Source: Alphaproteobacteria bacterium (GTDB taxonomy: Bacteria > Pseudomonadota > Alphaproteobacteria > Elsterales > Elsteraceae). Taken from it: 38,727 bases of DNA. Each line of letters opens with the position of its first letter. The first letter of the stretch is position 1. The position numbers were made by a program, and so were the translations under genes. The stretch lies in contig RDXE01000062.1 in NCBI GenBank assembly GCA_004292755.1, positions 1-38,727 of the forward strand, written 5' to 3'. The notes below the pieces were generated by a model. That model had not been told where the DNA came from. It saw only the letters and a list, made by a program, of their open reading frames with translations, and searched no databases. Below, one piece after another: positions 26,443 through 33,441 of this stretch.

Positions 26443-26519
<77 letters not shown>

Positions 26520-26551
26520 GTCGTCGGCATGGTTAGCACGCCCAACCGCGC

Positions 26552-26568
26552 CCGCCAAGCCGCTTGAT
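26552..26568. repeat. 17-bp direct repeat, left copy (putative attachment/target-site repeat)
   Basis: CCGCCAAGCCGCTTGAT is identical, and in the same orientation, at 32003-32019. The two copies bracket the low-GC block with the giant helicase-nuclease gene. This copy lies between tRNA-Arg and the stop of that gene. Confidence 0.8.
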
Positions 26569-26607: not shown

Positions 26608-29600
26608 TCAACCGTCCGCGCGGTCTATCACTTGAGCTAGCCGGTAGCGGACTTTGCCCTTTGGCAGGGTCACAGTGAAGCACTCGCCCTCCAAACGATC
26701 CTCTAGCTGGCTTCCCAGCGGCGTATGTAACCCCAACAATCCAGCATTTAGATCATGACGTCCACGAACTAACCTCATCCGTCTTTCCTTTGTGGGGTCC
26801 TCGTCTTCATACAGGACGATCTCGGTACCTTCTCGCGCTGAAAGTCGGGCTTGTCCGTCACTCGGGTCATCAACTTGATCGACCAAAATCTGATCAGTAT
26901 CGTCTGCGCTGTATTGATCAAGAGCTTCCTGCTTGCACAGCTGAGCGATTTTGTCATGAAGACATGAAGCTATATCCGGATCGCTCGAACTGGGTAGCTC
27001 CTTTGTCCTGGCATTATTAATGGCTTCAGTACATGCAGCGATCAGCCGAGTACGCTCTCGCGTCGGATCGGAGTACCAGTCACTTGACCAAATTCGATGA
27101 AATGACCAGCCGTTGGCCTCCAGCCGTTCCTGGCGAAGGCGGTCAGCTTCTCGGCGGGAGGCGGAGCGGTGCCACCGTTCACCGTCGCATTCGACTGCCA
27201 GTACATAGGCTCCCGCGTGAGTGGGGTGCCGGATGGCAATATCAATGCGGGCGCCAACACTGCCAACTTGCCAATCAAACGGGATATCTGCTGCGTCAAG
27301 TGCGATACCTACAGCCTCTTCAAAGCCGCTCTCTGGTCCGCGTCCCACAGCATTGGCGCCACCATAAGCGCCTCCACTCTCCACATATTGGAGAAACCGC
27401 TTCAAGATCACTCTACCCTCGCGCGGTCCACTATCTTGGGCGGCAGAAGGGCGATCTGAGATCTGCTCTGGGCGCAGGGATGACACCACCAGCATTTGAT
27501 CCCGAGCTCGTGTGATCATCACATTGAGGTGTCGATAACCTCCCGACTTGCTGATCGCGCCGAAAAACTGTAGCACACGACCATTCGGATTAGGACCATA
27601 GGTCATCGAGAGTATCACAACATCTCTTTCGTCTCCCTGTATGTTTTCCAAGTTTTTGATCAGAAACGGCTCTTTGCGAACATCCTCAGCCCATTGAATA
27701 TAATCTGACAAAGCTGTATTCCGGCCTTTGTAAGACCTTAAACGATCCTCAATCAGATCAGCTTGCTTTCCATTCATTGCGACGACTGCTAGAGTGCGAC
27801 GGCTAGTATCCTCTTTTGACATTTCTCCTTCAGCAATTCGAGCAACAAGCTCAACCACAGTTAGGGCCTCAGGAACATTCTGCTGATTCAAATATCTTGG
27901 ATTAGGAACCGAGATCATCCGGACACCGCGGCTACAGTGTGCACCCGAAGCCGAAGCGAATATTAGTAATTCATTGTCGTACACTTTCTCATTCGAAAAT
28001 CGAATCAAGCTTTCGTGACGGGATCGATAGTGCCATAGCAATCTCCGGGTTGGATATCTCCCCTGCGCAGCCACAAGAATACTGTCAACATCAATAGTAT
28101 TTGCTTGAGTATCGTCCTCACTAGCGTCCAAATGATCATCATCCAGACGCTGAAACAGACTTGTTGGGGGAAGTTGATGTGGATCACCGACGACGACAAA
28201 CTGATCAGCTCGTGCTAAGGCACCCAATCCTTCTTGCAGCGTCAACTGAGATGCTTCATCAATGATCAACAGATCAAATCTTTGCCCATCAGGTTCTAAG
28301 AACTGAGCGACAGCGAGTGGAGACATCATAAAACAAGGGAACAGGTCGGTCAAAGCTTTACGAGCACGCCGCATAATCGTCCGGATAGGCATTCTTGTCT
28401 TCTTGGCTTTAGTCAATGTTTCCAGCAGAATACGATCTGTCATCTCTGCCAGTTTAGCAGTTTCTGTACCCTCCTGAGCTATGTTTTGACTCAAGAGTGC
28501 CACAATGCGCGCAATAGTTTCCTCACGGACATCAAGATCAGCTTTTGTAAATTCGGCTCGTAGTGCCGTAGCTGTTGAGCCAGAGAACTGCGCGATTGCA
28601 GGTCGACTTAGCACAGCTTCAGCGATGGGGCGCCACCGCGCCAGCCGATCCAGGTCCCAGAGTTGGGATGCGGAGGCAACGCCACTGTCGAGAAGGCGCA
28701 GCAGCGGCGCACGTCCGGCGTCGCGTAAGGTCGCTCGAAGTGACTCTAAGTCCAGCCAGGGCAACAATGCTGAGGTTGACCCAATCTCCCCAAGATGACG
28801 CGCAATCTCGAATAGTGCACGCGAAGGCGGGGCAAAACCCACGGAACCAAAATCAACATAAGCATCAACTTCGCGCTTGCAGGCAAGATACTGAGTAAGG
28901 GCATTGGTCAAATCCTGGTAGTGCTTTGGTAAATCCTGGAATAGCATTGTGCCTTCTTCTTGATCAAGTATATGAATGATCCGTTGACGGAGCGCTAGGG
29001 GAAGCTCTTCAATACAGTACCGAACGGCTAATGCACCATTGGCGCGGACCCACCACCCATCCCAGTCACCAAGTCCTGGATTTTGATCGCACCAACCGGC
29101 ACTCCGCAACCGATCCCGTGCTGTCGCCAACTTAAGAACAACATGAATCTTCGCGCGACGGATCGCGAGCGGCATAGACGCATCGATACCAAGAGACTGG
29201 AGACCGCGGACAAAGGACTGAGCGCGCCGCTCCTCCATTGGATCGGGCTGAGGGATGCGCGCACTGCCCTTGTCGGGTAGCAATCCTAAACGGTCAACAA
29301 CCGCTACCCTCTGCGCAAGTTGGTCTGCGAGTGTGTGTAATACCTCTAACCCATCTCCATCAGCACGAACTGCAACCTTAAGGAACGCTGCTGGTAGCTT
29401 TGCCAAAGATTTTGCAAACAATAATTCATAGCTAAGAGATGGGCCGAAAATAACATCAGATTTCAGTATTTCTCGAATCAATGGTACTCTCCGAAGTCTG
29501 TCTGCTTGTTTCGCAAGATCACTGTGACGTTTCAGGCTGTCGATCAGCTGCCCAAGTGTCACTGCATCAGATGTAGCGAATCGTGTAATTTTGCGTCGCA

Positions 29601-31848
29601 GGTCGGTGGGTAAACGGGAGATTGTAAGCATTGGCGAGATGCGGTTCTCCGTCAATCTAGTTAGAGTATCGGCGTGCTTTATCGCTTGATCTCCGGGGAG
29701 TGCAAGCACGTCGCGGGAAAGTATTTGGCTGAGCGCCGATGTTGCCGTTAGGTGGGCATGAAGTTCAGCAGCATTGTGAGCAGCGTCAGCCAGAAGCTGC
29801 ATATCCAGTCCCGCGACCCAGGCAGGCGTGGTCCCGCTTGAACGTGGTGGCGGACGCAACCGATCAGGCGCCTGCCGCAGGTGGTCCACCGTCTGCAGAA
29901 CTATGTCTGTTGCTTTGGCAATTGCGGTCAACACCTCCTGAAGGTCAATCAAGGCCGCCTGTGCCTGTCTTGCCTCCTCCGGGGTGCGAGTACCACCCTC
30001 CAGCTGTTTGGCAATGTGTTGGATATCCTCGATTGGCTGGTCGATCCACCCTCGATTGCCGCCAATGGCGTCAGGATGAAGTGCCTCGCAGAGGGTCTCC
30101 ATGTCCTTCAGAAGCGTTGATCCGGGATCGCTGAGGACCTGTCTGCAGAGCGCCAAATCGGCACACTCCGGGATCGCCGAGACTGCAGCCAAGCGATCTT
30201 GGATAGTTTGTGCTTGATGTAATGTGATCGTCGAAACAGCGGGTGGTTGGGCAAGCCAATTTGCAGCTTGGTGAGCTGCGTTAGCAAGAGTAAGAGCTGC
30301 GTCCTCTAGACGACTCAGTCGTCCTTTTACCAATGCTTTTGGTATGTCTGGCCTCAAAGTCAAACCTTGGAGAGGGGACAGATCGCATGTCGACGCTTTT
30401 TCGATCGCCTCCGCCAGTTGCTTGTAGGTTCGTTCAATCTCTCCATCGGTCAGAGGGGAAGCTGCCGCCTCAATCGTCAGCCGTCGATCGGCCACTGAGC
30501 CAAGGCGAGCGCGAGCGGCCTCGGCGGCCCAGATGGCATCAAAGCCGCTGACACCTGCAGGCTCCACAGGCTCTGCCAGTGCGCGCGCAGGCAGTGCCAA
30601 AGATCGCCAAGCGTTATCGCGAGCAGGGCGACTGTCAGTTCGGGGGGCAAGTTGTGGGGTCAAGCGTAGACGTCGACGAACCCGATCAAGAAATCCAGAT
30701 CGCGTTGTCCCGGTACCGTGCAAATCCAGACAGAAGTCCCCAAGCCCAGCATCATGAAGCCGACGGCGAACAACATCCAGAGCTGCTTGCTTTTGAGATA
30801 CAAACAGAACGCGCTTATTGTCTGCAAGTGCTGCTGCAATTAAATTACAAATGGTTTGTGACTTGCCTGTGCCAGGCGGTCCTTCAATTACAAGGCTGTG
30901 TTTTTTGACAAGCGCTTCAACAAGGGCCGCATGTTGGGTGCCATCAGCGTCATATATCAGCGGTGGCAGCGGGTCTGGTTGCCCCGATGCTTCGAGCACT
31001 ATCGAATCATAGGGAATGTCCTCAGGTCTTGTAAACTTCTTAAACGGCCCTGCCAATACTCGTCGGACGTGGGGATTGCGTCGAACAGCTGGGTGCTGCA
31101 GATCACGGTGAAGTCGAAGGGCAGCAAAATTAAGGATTCCAATAGCAGCCCGACGGTGAAGTACAGCTCCAGGCAATTTTTGATCTGAAGCCTTCATCCA
31201 ATTGGTAATTCGATCAAGATAATCGTCGACAGATTCGTCCTCTTCAATTTCCGGAAGTTTTATCCGAAATTCGTCGTGGAGCTTTCTTCTTAATGTTGCA
31301 TTGTCTTCTGGAGCATCAAGTTTCGCCATCACATCATCCCGCAGGCTGATGGGAGTCGAAAGCAGGGGTGACCAGAGCGGACTGGCGTCCTCTTTGTTGG
31401 TGCTAGGGTCTCGCCATTCCAAAAAGCCAGTGACCAGCTTGATTACGTCAAGACCATTCTCTTGAGCGAAGGTGCGTCCGGCTTTTGCAATCTTGTGTAA
31501 CGACTCGTCCAGCAACCTCCGGTCCGTATCGGCGAAAACGCTACCGGATGCATGGGTTCCACCAACGGGATCGCGGGACACTGCAGCGACCTGTGATCCC
31601 GGCTGGGTACTAGGGTGAGGCGTGATGCGCAGCCCCTTTTTCGCAGCATCAGCGTCGGGGATCGAGTCAAGCAGCCAATCCAAAGATGGGAAGCCTGCCA
31701 GCCAGATGCGTCTTCCGGTTCCGCGCTCGAACTGAATCAGCGGACTACGGCGATCTGTCTGAAGAAGTTTTGCAGCCTGCGCTTCCAGTGCCGCATTTAA
31801 GACACTTTCATCAATGCCGTCTTCGTTGGGGGATGTGTCGGCCGACAT
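26608..31848 (-). CDS. Giant DUF4011-like/SF1 helicase-Vsr-like nuclease with GreA/GreB C-terminal domain
   Basis: The 1746-residue product has, in order, a DUF4011-like helicase-associated region (about 20-265), Walker A GPPGTGKS (323-330), an insert of some 870 mostly helical residues, Walker B IDEAS (D1197-S1200), GDPHQLPP (from 1221), HYRSRHESL (about 1276), GDERDVVILS (about 1402) and ITRARDQMLVVS. A Vsr/MTES_1575-type nuclease follows (D1536, E1553 and D1555 in AVECDGERWH). The last 73 residues (1674-1746) resemble the GreA/GreB C-terminal domain (TPLGSQLEDRLEGE, then VTLPKGKVRYRLAQVI). Helicase-Vsr fusions with DUF4011 are known single-gene antiviral systems. AGGA lies 6 nt before ATG 31848. 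GC is about 50%, unlike the host. The antiviral role is inferred. Confidence 0.88.
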   Translation of the reverse strand: MSADTSPNEDGIDESVLNAALEAQAAKLLQTDRRSPLIQFERGTGRRIWLAGFPSLDWLLDSIPDADAAKKGLRITPHPSTQPGSQVAAVSRDPVGGTHASGSVFADTDRRLLDESLHKIAKAGRTFAQENGLDVIKLVTGFLEWRDPSTNKEDASPLWSPLLSTPISLRDDVMAKLDAPEDNATLRRKLHDEFRIKLPEIEEDESVDDYLDRITNWMKASDQKLPGAVLHRRAAIGILNFAALRLHRDLQHPAVRRNPHVRRVLAGPFKKFTRPEDIPYDSIVLEASGQPDPLPPLIYDADGTQHAALVEALVKKHSLVIEGPPGTGKSQTICNLIAAALADNKRVLFVSQKQAALDVVRRRLHDAGLGDFCLDLHGTGTTRSGFLDRVRRRLRLTPQLAPRTDSRPARDNAWRSLALPARALAEPVEPAGVSGFDAIWAAEAARARLGSVADRRLTIEAAASPLTDGEIERTYKQLAEAIEKASTCDLSPLQGLTLRPDIPKALVKGRLSRLEDAALTLANAAHQAANWLAQPPAVSTITLHQAQTIQDRLAAVSAIPECADLALCRQVLSDPGSTLLKDMETLCEALHPDAIGGNRGWIDQPIEDIQHIAKQLEGGTRTPEEARQAQAALIDLQEVLTAIAKATDIVLQTVDHLRQAPDRLRPPPRSSGTTPAWVAGLDMQLLADAAHNAAELHAHLTATSALSQILSRDVLALPGDQAIKHADTLTRLTENRISPMLTISRLPTDLRRKITRFATSDAVTLGQLIDSLKRHSDLAKQADRLRRVPLIREILKSDVIFGPSLSYELLFAKSLAKLPAAFLKVAVRADGDGLEVLHTLADQLAQRVAVVDRLGLLPDKGSARIPQPDPMEERRAQSFVRGLQSLGIDASMPLAIRRAKIHVVLKLATARDRLRSAGWCDQNPGLGDWDGWWVRANGALAVRYCIEELPLALRQRIIHILDQEEGTMLFQDLPKHYQDLTNALTQYLACKREVDAYVDFGSVGFAPPSRALFEIARHLGEIGSTSALLPWLDLESLRATLRDAGRAPLLRLLDSGVASASQLWDLDRLARWRPIAEAVLSRPAIAQFSGSTATALRAEFTKADLDVREETIARIVALLSQNIAQEGTETAKLAEMTDRILLETLTKAKKTRMPIRTIMRRARKALTDLFPCFMMSPLAVAQFLEPDGQRFDLLIIDEASQLTLQEGLGALARADQFVVVGDPHQLPPTSLFQRLDDDHLDASEDDTQANTIDVDSILVAAQGRYPTRRLLWHYRSRHESLIRFSNEKVYDNELLIFASASGAHCSRGVRMISVPNPRYLNQQNVPEALTVVELVARIAEGEMSKEDTSRRTLAVVAMNGKQADLIEDRLRSYKGRNTALSDYIQWAEDVRKEPFLIKNLENIQGDERDVVILSMTYGPNPNGRVLQFFGAISKSGGYRHLNVMITRARDQMLVVSSLRPEQISDRPSAAQDSGPREGRVILKRFLQYVESGGAYGGANAVGRGPESGFEEAVGIALDAADIPFDWQVGSVGARIDIAIRHPTHAGAYVLAVECDGERWHRSASRREADRLRQERLEANGWSFHRIWSSDWYSDPTRERTRLIAACTEAINNARTKELPSSSDPDIASCLHDKIAQLCKQEALDQYSADDTDQILVDQVDDPSDGQARLSAREGTEIVLYEDEDPTKERRMRLVRGRHDLNAGLLGLHTPLGSQLEDRLEGECFTVTLPKGKVRYRLAQVIDRADG

Positions 31849-31968: not shown

Positions 31969-32007
31969 TCGGTAGATGCAATCTGAAAACCGAATGGCGG
32001 GTCCGCC
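31969..32007. other. Two adjacent hairpins at the right end of the cassette
   Basis: TCGGT-AGAT, loop GCA, ATCT, a GAAA bulge and ACCGA form one stem (31969-31993). GGCGG/CCGCC around GT forms another (31996-32007), whose right arm is the first five bases of the 17-bp repeat. They could be recombinase or replication signals, or the terminal structure of the element. No matching pair is seen at the left end. Confidence 0.4.
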
Positions 32008-32019
32008 AAGCCGCTTGAT
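32003..32019. repeat. 17-bp direct repeat, right copy
   Basis: Identical to 26552-26568. It lies 30 bp upstream of the alginate-lyase-like start codon, exactly where GC content returns to the host level. Confidence 0.8.
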
Positions 32020-32049
32020 CGCTGCGTGCGGGGGTGGTCCACTCTGCCC

Positions 32050-33441
32050 ATGCGCTGTGCGGTTTACCTGCTGATCTTGTTGGCGGCCAGCCCGGCCTTT
32101 GGGCGGGATGGGCTGTATCGGGGCACGCAAACCTGTGAAGCGGCTGGGTCGTCGCCGGGGTTCACCATCGAGTGGCGTGCCACAGTGCGCGATGGGCGGT
32201 TAGTGTCCGAGCGCGGGCAGCGGGATCAGGAGAATTGGGAGCGGGTCGAGGGTGTGGTTGGCCCGGACGGGCGGGTCACGCTCAACGGCGTGTATCGCTT
32301 CCAGGGCGAGCGGCCAATCCGCCTTGCGGGCCGTGTCTCTGCGGCGGGGCTGGAGGTGGCAGGCGAGCGGGGACCGCGCAGCTGTCGGGTGGTTGCAAGC
32401 AGCCCGCCCCCGGCCTCCGTTGCGCAGCCCTACCGCCTGCTGCCAGATGTTGCGGAGCAACGCCGGGCCTTTACCCGATCAGCGCGGACGGTCACCTGCG
32501 ATGCGCCCCCCGATCCGGTCTCGGACGTTGTGGTGGAGCCCTTCTATCGCAAGGATGACCCCACCCATTCGATCATTGATCCAGCGGCCCTGGAGCGGCG
32601 CAGGCAAGCGGCGATGCCGTTTGAGACCTATTCCCGTGGGCTGGCACGCATCGGTGATGCGGTCCTGGTGTCTGGTGCCCAGAACCCGGCCCTGGGTACC
32701 TGCTTGCTCGGCTGGCTGGATCACTGGGCGAGTGCCGGGGCGATGCTGGGTCGGGTGACTATGCAGGGTGGGTTTGAGCGCAAATGGACCCTTGCCACCA
32801 TCGCCCTCAATCTACCGCTGCTGACGCCCGACCAGCGAGCGAGTGCCGCAGGGCAGCGGGTGCTGGCTTGGGTGCGCGATCTCGGCTGGGCAGTCGCCCC
32901 AGCCTACACTGCCTCACGCTCCACTGCGGCGAACAACAATCACTTGAACTGGGCCGTGCTGGCGGTGCTGTCCGCTGGTCTGGCGACGGAGGACCCGGCC
33001 TTAGTCGACTGGGCTGTGGATCGGTTGGATCACGCGCTGTCGTTGATCGAACCCGATGGCAGCCTGCCGTTCGAGTTGGCGCGTGGTGCTAAAGCCGTCC
33101 ACTATCACGCCTTCGCCGTGGAGCCGACCGTGCTGGCGGTTGCCTTGCTGGCGGCCAATGGCCTGGACATGGCCGACGCCCACGGCGGCGCCTTGCATCG
33201 GTTGGTGCGCTTTGTGCGCGATGGCATGGCGGATCCAAGCCCCGTGGCGGCGCGGGTGGGGATGCCGCAAGACTTCTTCCACAGCCAGACCCCGCGCCCC
33301 AACCGCTATGGCTGGGCGGAGATTTACCTCGCGCGGTATCCCGATCCCGTGCTGGCCGCCCGACTGGCGGAGGTGCGCGGCGATGGGCTGGTGACTGTGT
33401 GGCTGGGTGGCTCCACCACGTGGCGTTACGGTAAACGCTGA
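32050..33441 (+). CDS. Exported AlgL-like alginate lyase family protein
   Basis: The 463-residue product starts with a signal peptide (MRCAVYLLILLAASPAFG) and has a PL5/AlgL-like alpha-barrel lyase domain in its second half. Catalytic residues of AlgL can be matched: N297-H298 in NNNHLNW, R345 and Y352 in LPFELARGAKAVHYH, with a Lys candidate in FYRKDDPTHS. AlgL cleaves alginate by beta-elimination in the periplasm. The N-terminal part (20-140) is extra and unrecognised. No alginate synthesis genes are nearby, so another uronate polymer is possible. Its upstream region now contains the cassette boundary. Its 3' end overlaps the converging GNAT gene by 16 bp. Confidence 0.82.
   Translation: MRCAVYLLILLAASPAFGRDGLYRGTQTCEAAGSSPGFTIEWRATVRDGRLVSERGQRDQENWERVEGVVGPDGRVTLNGVYRFQGERPIRLAGRVSAAGLEVAGERGPRSCRVVASSPPPASVAQPYRLLPDVAEQRRAFTRSARTVTCDAPPDPVSDVVVEPFYRKDDPTHSIIDPAALERRRQAAMPFETYSRGLARIGDAVLVSGAQNPALGTCLLGWLDHWASAGAMLGRVTMQGGFERKWTLATIALNLPLLTPDQRASAAGQRVLAWVRDLGWAVAPAYTASRSTAANNNHLNWAVLAVLSAGLATEDPALVDWAVDRLDHALSLIEPDGSLPFELARGAKAVHYHAFAVEPTVLAVALLAANGLDMADAHGGALHRLVRFVRDGMADPSPVAARVGMPQDFFHSQTPRPNRYGWAEIYLARYPDPVLAARLAEVRGDGLVTVWLGGSTTWRYGKR

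What the first reader, a model, noticed from the sequence alone, without database searches (positions are those of the whole stretch)
26608..31848. Helicase-nuclease defence protein with a GreA/GreB-type C-terminal domain
The 1746-residue product combines a DUF4011-like region, an SF1 helicase and a Vsr/MTES_1575-like nuclease, an architecture known from antiviral proteins. Its last 73 residues (1674-1746) look like the C-terminal FKBP-like domain of GreA/GreB, which in Gre factors docks on RNA polymerase. The Gre N-terminal coiled coil is absent. A defence nuclease that docks on transcribing polymerase, phage or host, would be a new sensing or targeting mode. The fusion is seen; the docking role is inference.
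Basis: partly seen in the sequence, partly recalled or inferred. Interest (0 to 1): 0.78.

Follow-up and report, generated by a model that had tools for sequence, protein, structure and literature searches.

The report
Helicase-nuclease with Gre polymerase-binding tail
A horizontally acquired bacterial gene joins a DNA-unwinding and DNA-cutting protein of the kind used against viruses to the small domain with which Gre factors grip RNA polymerase; the same join recurs in about twenty relatives, so the enzyme probably works at polymerases that are transcribing DNA.

Summary
The gene (minus strand, 26608-31848, 1746 aa) encodes DUF4011, an SF1 helicase and an MTES_1575 nuclease, ending in a true GreA/GreB C-terminal domain (about 1674-1746). 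Support: Pfam (tail alone E 1.6e-6, above cut-off), best structural matches GreA, Gfh1, GreB and Rnk (Z 8.5-12.4; other FKBP folds up to 7.7), and a family profile whose best solved match is E. coli GreA (1.8e-7). The Gre coiled coil is absent.

The tail is not part of the nuclease: most relatives carry DUF3320, another domain or nothing there. About twenty further proteins carry it. Nearly all lie in one DUF3320-poor clade, mainly alphaproteobacterial; one, on a Microvirga plasmid, belongs to a separate helicase-nuclease lineage. The Gre [ST]PLGxAL segment is largely kept.

The gene looks like a one-gene insertion: GC 51-56% against about 65%, a 17-bp flanking repeat unique in the genome, beside tRNA-Arg, absent at the same site in a congener.

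Most likely the tail tethers the enzyme to the rim helices of RNA polymerase. Docking and antiviral action are inferred. A 2021 paper predicted Gre-C docking for unrelated TPR-PIN conflict proteins; I found no paper describing this fusion.

The parts
26608..31848 (-). Whole gene, 1746 aa, ATG start at 31848, stop at 26608-26610
   Evidence: no frameshift or internal stop
31333..31770 (-). DUF4011 region, residues 27-172
   Evidence: Pfam PF13195 1.5e-11
28234..30942 (-). First helicase part, residues 303-1205 with a long insertion; Walker A GPPGTGKS 323-330 (30859-30882), Walker B IIDEAS 1195-1200
   Evidence: Pfam AAA_11/AAA_30/AAA_19; motif positions
27478..28056 (-). Second RecA-like helicase part, residues 1265-1457, ITRAR motif at 1445-1449
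   Evidence: Pfam AAA_12 7.6e-13
27034..27324 (-). MTES_1575 / Vsr-like nuclease, residues 1509-1605; D1536 (in RIDIAI, from 1534), E1553, C1554, D1555, G1556 conserved
   Evidence: Pfam PF18741 2.2e-28; invariant columns
26830..26976 (-). Low-confidence, variable linker, residues about 1625-1673; no Gre coiled coil
   Evidence: AlphaFold pLDDT about 33-65 over this stretch; unalignable among homologues
26611..26829 (-). GreA/GreB C-terminal (FKBP-like) domain, residues 1674-1746; motif HTPLG at 1708-1712
26443..26519 (-). tRNA-Arg (CCG) directly beside the gene
   Evidence: ARAGORN; 79/79 identical in the congener
26547..26568 (+). Left copy of flanking direct repeat (17 bp exact, 26552-26568)
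31998..32019 (+). Right copy of flanking direct repeat (17 bp exact, 32003-32019)

Best explanation
The gene encodes a one-protein, horizontally spread defence enzyme of the DUF4011-helicase-nuclease (Hhe/ProA/PDC-S37-like) kind in which the usual C-terminal DUF3320 module is replaced by a Gre-C domain on a variable linker. SHOWN by sequence and model: the domains, the intact catalytic motifs, the missing coiled coil, the linker, the recurrent fusion, the insertion site. INFERRED: the Gre-C domain binds the beta-prime rim helices at the secondary channel of host RNA polymerase, as in GreA, GreB, Gfh1 and Rnk, but without a coiled coil to enter the channel it serves only as a tether. That places the helicase and nuclease beside transcribed DNA; the helicase loads on an exposed strand or on a structure typical of heavily transcribed, stalled or replicating invader DNA, and the nuclease cuts it. 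Self/non-self choice would lie in the helicase substrate, not in the tail, because host genes use the same polymerase. HX or DUF3320 in relatives would be alternative targeting or sensing modules.
For: Tail is Gre-C, not just any FKBP fold: Pfam; structure ranks GreA 12.4, Gfh1 11.8, GreB 9.2, Rnk 8.5 before SlyD 7.7, Foldseek in much the same order; profile versus solved structures best at E. coli GreA 1.8e-7 and also Rnk. Ten of ten tested tails hit PF01272, E 4e-5 to 2e-13. The Gre-specific [ST]PLGxAL loop-helix holds about half of the best conserved tail columns; in E. coli GreA the same stretch matters: S121P loses RNAP binding, S124L loses activity (PMC7527559). The tail is an independently folded domain on a low-confidence linker. 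All Gre tails of the DUF4011 family sit in one supported clade that nearly lacks DUF3320, and a Gre tail also occurs on a separate helicase-nuclease lineage. Defence setting: PADLOC PDC-S37 7e-240, Hhe 1e-163; Leisingera copy beside a GmrSD-type and a type IIG restriction gene; serine recombinases or a transposase beside three copies; one-gene insertion in the window.
Against: No binding or phage data exist. The window's own tail is the divergent member: Q1714 and C1723 replace residues that are Ala and Glu in nearly all other tails, and its branch is long, so docking may be weakened in this copy. The isolated GreA C-domain is not enough for specific RNAP binding; the coiled coil contributes (PMC7527559). 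Several members of the same clade have no tail (L084, L094, L112), so it is dispensable for some. Most neighbours are not known defence genes.
Confidence: 0.55

Rival explanations
1. Guard or decoy: the Gre-C domain is bait or sensor for phage proteins that attack the secondary channel or Gre/DksA-type factors; contact with such a protein, not polymerase docking, switches the helicase-nuclease on.
For: Swapping of C-terminal modules at one position (DUF3320, Gre, HX, none) looks like a variable sensor; the tail is divergent while the nuclease is conserved.
Against: A decoy need not keep the polymerase-contact segment better than the rest, yet that segment is among the best conserved. No phage partner is known.
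Confidence: 0.15
2. The Gre-C fold is a mere structural or dimerisation module or regulates the nuclease in cis; polymerase binding has been lost.
For: Tail identity between homologues is low (15-25% to the window copy); the window copy departs at Q1714 and C1723; FKBP-like domains often serve other ends.
Against: The model shows a low-confidence linker and no confident packing on the nuclease; Gre-specific motif kept; recruitment of the same domain by a second lineage.
Confidence: 0.2
3. The protein is not defence but housekeeping: a transcription-coupled helicase-nuclease acting at conflicts between transcription and replication, in the manner of HelD or Mfd.
For: HelD, an NTPase, also enters the RNAP secondary channel with a Gre-like arm (PMC7749165, abstract; weak structural match 6wvk).
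Against: Sporadic: about 5 of 289 sampled genomes of the class, on plasmids and near mobile-element genes, in a one-gene insertion lacking from the congener.
Confidence: 0.1

Closest known systems
Hhe (DUF4011 - helicase - Vsr-type nuclease antiphage protein; NF042953) and ProA (NF058533)
   Same: Same order of DUF4011, SF1 helicase and MTES_1575/Vsr-like nuclease; strong profile matches (743 and 785 bits)
   Different: Far below the curated cut-offs (2000 and 1500 bits); no DUF3320 (part of the usual Hhe-like architecture); Gre-C domain instead
PADLOC PDC-S37 (candidate defence protein)
   Same: Best profile, 7e-240; Gre-tailed relatives match at E 0
   Different: Match stops at profile position 1356-1382 of 1550, just after the nuclease, where linker and Gre tail begin
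TPR - GreA/B-C - PIN conflict systems (eLife 2021, PMC8195603)
   Same: GreA/B-C domain in a counter-invader protein, predicted to dock on polymerases transcribing viral DNA
   Different: RNase PIN effector and TPR core, variable N-terminal effectors; no helicase or MTES_1575 nuclease. Ours would cut DNA.
GreA, GreB, Gfh1, Rnk
   Same: C-terminal FKBP-like domain, sequence and fold
   Different: No N-terminal coiled coil with acidic tip, so no transcript cleavage expected
HelD
   Same: NTPase that engages the RNAP secondary channel (PMC7749165)
   Different: No nuclease; uses its own arms, not a Gre-C domain

Membership tests
GreA_GreB C-terminal domain (PF01272) | Profile score over the curated cut-off of 26.9 bits | tested here: met
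   28.5 bits for the tail alone, 27.8 in the six-frame genome search; 21.7 when scored in the whole protein
GreA_GreB C-terminal domain (PF01272) | Gre-type FKBP-like fold, closer to Gre than to other FKBPs | tested here: met
   Z 8.5-12.4 to Gre, Gfh1 and Rnk against at most 7.7 for SlyD and other FKBPs
GreA/GreB transcript cleavage factors | N-terminal coiled coil with acidic tip | tested here: not met
   Residues before the tail are the nuclease and a variable linker; no Gre N-terminal match in Pfam, model
Gre-C as RNAP-binding domain | Binds beta-prime rim helices | not testable with these tools
   Needs complex modelling or a binding assay; motif retention is only indirect
Hhe (NF042953) | Score over curated cut-off 2000 | tested here: not met
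   742.7 bits
Hhe-like architecture | C-terminal DUF3320 | tested here: not met
   No DUF3320 match in the window protein at E up to 10
ProA (NF058533) | Score over curated cut-off 1500 | tested here: not met
   785.5 bits
TPR - GreA/B-C - PIN conflict system | TPR and PIN domains beside GreA/B-C | tested here: not met
   Neither found by Pfam at E up to 10
Antiphage defence in general | Restricts phage when expressed | not testable with these tools
   No experiment; only architecture, context and mobility

The most novel reading that the evidence does not exclude
A transcription-coupled antiviral helicase-nuclease: the Gre-C tail clamps the enzyme to the rim helices of host RNA polymerase, so that invader DNA is found and degraded because and while it is being transcribed, with C-terminal modules (Gre, DUF3320, HX) swapped to choose the place of attack.
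Probability: 0.4. Interest if true: 0.82.

Novelty: new variant of a known kind. Interest (0 to 1): 0.6.

Why it matters
If true, a DNA-degrading immune enzyme would find its target through the host's own transcription machinery, a targeting mode that to my knowledge has not been shown for a single-protein DNA-cutting defence system. It gives a direct, cheap test: one conserved surface on RNA polymerase, one motif in the tail, and cultured strains that carry complete copies (Rhizobium leguminosarum Norway pRLN2 WP_105009419.1, Limimaricola pyoseonensis DSM 21424, Sneathiella litorea, Leisingera sp. ANG-Vp). It also suggests why Hhe-like proteins differ at their C-termini: the slot after the nuclease is a module socket.

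Tried and rejected
(1) That the tail is an ordinary part of the nuclease: rejected; DUF3320, HX or nothing stands at the same place in most homologues and the model shows two separate domains. (2) Chance match: rejected. (3) Recent capture of the host's own greA: not supported; the host GreA matches the tail only at E 0.135, 32% identity. (4) A strict single clade of all Gre-tailed rows: rejected as stated (p-AU 1.8e-19), but tail-less members lie inside; with these included and the window row added it is not rejected (p-AU 0.28), so one fusion with later losses is possible within the DUF4011 lineage. (5) The PF01272 survey over 385 genomes did not help, since fusions are swamped by normal Gre factors and the list is cut. 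(6) Literature: no held paper describes this fusion; the library lacks most subscription papers, so absence is weak evidence. (8) VIA-align was a second look at Foldseek's own matches only.

Full report
OBSERVATION. The frame 26608-31848 is intact and lies on the minus strand. Pfam finds DUF4011, two RecA-like helicase halves, an MTES_1575 nuclease and, at residues 1678-1740, GreA_GreB. The Gre match is modest inside the long protein (2e-4, 21.7 bits) and passes the curated cut-off when the tail is scored alone (1.6e-6, 28.5 bits) or in the six-frame search (27.8 bits). The genome's only other PF01272 place is a normal GreA. Catalytic motifs are in place: Walker A at 323, Walker B at 1195, ITRAR at 1445, nuclease RIDIAI at 1534 and ECDG at 1553.

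STRUCTURE. AlphaFold with 19 aligned tails gives mean pLDDT 81. The nearest solved structures are GreA, Gfh1, the N. europaea GreA/GreB protein, GreB and Rnk, well above the general FKBPs. The family profile against solved sequences also ranks E. coli GreA first and includes Rnk. A model of nuclease plus tail shows two confident domains joined by a low-confidence linker. The Gre coiled coil is absent, so transcript cleavage is not expected.

SURVEY. Searches of whole genomes, GTDB contigs, viral contigs and plasmids give about twenty distinct further proteins with the tail: four in the first sample of 289 genomes of the class (one a fragment, one with a stop before the tail), then Leisingera, Limimaricola, two Sneathiella, Boseongicola, Cohaesibacter, Micavibrio, Hyphomonadaceae and others, a Binatia and a Bacteroidetes MAG (binning not checked), a Gammaproteobacterium with a divergent copy, and Rhizobium leguminosarum plasmid pRLN2. 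Of 105 homologues in the tree 68 carry DUF3320, 16 Gre, 5 a helical domain here called HX, 16 none (one of the last is a duplicate of a Gre-tailed row cut by a stop, one is cut by a contig end). The sample was picked by closeness to Gre-tailed queries, so these are not natural frequencies. All Gre tails lie in one clade of 30 rows (SH-aLRT 100) with HX and tail-less rows and one row bearing HX plus DUF3320. One genome has nuclease, Gre and DUF3320 in a row (L149). A Microvirga ossetica plasmid protein with another N-terminus, no DUF4011 and a long separating branch also ends in a Gre domain; its sister L031, from the window's own bacterial family, ends in HX plus a DUF3320-like part. So Gre-C entered helicase-nuclease proteins at least twice, or was swapped between lineages.

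CONSERVATION. About half of the 18 best conserved tail columns fall in residues 1703-1723, the loop and helix with [ST]PLGxAL. In E. coli GreA this is about I120-L130 (numbering checked on a sequence written from memory); S121P abolishes RNAP binding and S124L activity (PMC7527559). The segment may also be kept for the fold, so this is indirect. The window copy keeps TPLG and the leucines but has Q1714 and C1723 where others have Ala and Glu, so it is the least typical member.

LOCATION. The gene has 51-56% GC between flanks of mostly 65-68%, ends 89 bases from tRNA-Arg(CCG) and is bracketed by a 17-bp exact repeat that occurs nowhere else in the genome. In the same-genus genome G001 the identical tRNA is followed within about 0.7 kb by the alginate lyase homologue, and no family member is found in that genome, which is 88% complete. 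This is the footprint of a one-gene insertion; the repeat is on the 5' side of the tRNA, so it is not a standard tRNA 3'-end attachment site. Sneathiella litorea carries its copy near a tRNA-Arg(CCG) too, and two others lie near tRNA-Gly and tRNA-Ser. The Leisingera copy stands beside restriction genes; serine recombinases or a transposase stand beside three copies.

MECHANISM. In Gre factors the globular C-terminal domain rests on the beta-prime rim helices outside the secondary channel (PMC7527559). A protein with this domain but no coiled coil should be tethered without touching the active site. The likely role is targeting: keep a helicase-nuclease where DNA is being transcribed. Because host genes share the polymerase, discrimination must come from elsewhere, most simply from the DNA structure that the helicase accepts. 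These steps are inferred.

NOVELTY. The idea that GreA/B-C domains guide counter-invader proteins to polymerase was published for TPR-PIN proteins (PMC8195603). The fusion to helicase-DNase proteins, its clade-wide distribution and the module swapping with DUF3320 were not found in any held paper. I file it as a new variant of a known kind.

Noticed in passing
L033:13787-13792 (also L090) and L037:9245-9250: Two homologues from different genomes have a stop (TAG, TGA) at the same conserved Trp codon of WSTDW, just after the nuclease; in the first the Gre tail downstream stays open and conserved in frame. Assembly error, pseudogene or readthrough was not settled.
   Followed up: partly
L062, L097, L108, L121, L124, L007 C-termini; L008 and L031 with DUF3320: An unnamed helical domain (LLRxxMIDALL..RP..DEFRxxIPxxLR..T) replaces or precedes DUF3320 at the same place.
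   Followed up: partly
L149:1465-2730: Nuclease, Gre-C and DUF3320 in one polypeptide, so the two modules are not exclusive.
   Followed up: partly
L028, L035, L082 (genome G072): A further stretch of about 170 residues follows the Gre domain in this homologue.
   Followed up: no
L144:2894-7846 (Microvirga ossetica plasmid): A second helicase-MTES_1575 lineage without DUF4011 that also ends in Gre-C; no gene is annotated there.
   Followed up: partly
L094:227-958: A free-standing Gre-type factor lies about 2 kb upstream of a tail-less member of the same clade.
   Followed up: no
window 32026-33441 and L142: Alginate lyase gene beside the insertion; the congener has two tandem copies there.
   Followed up: no
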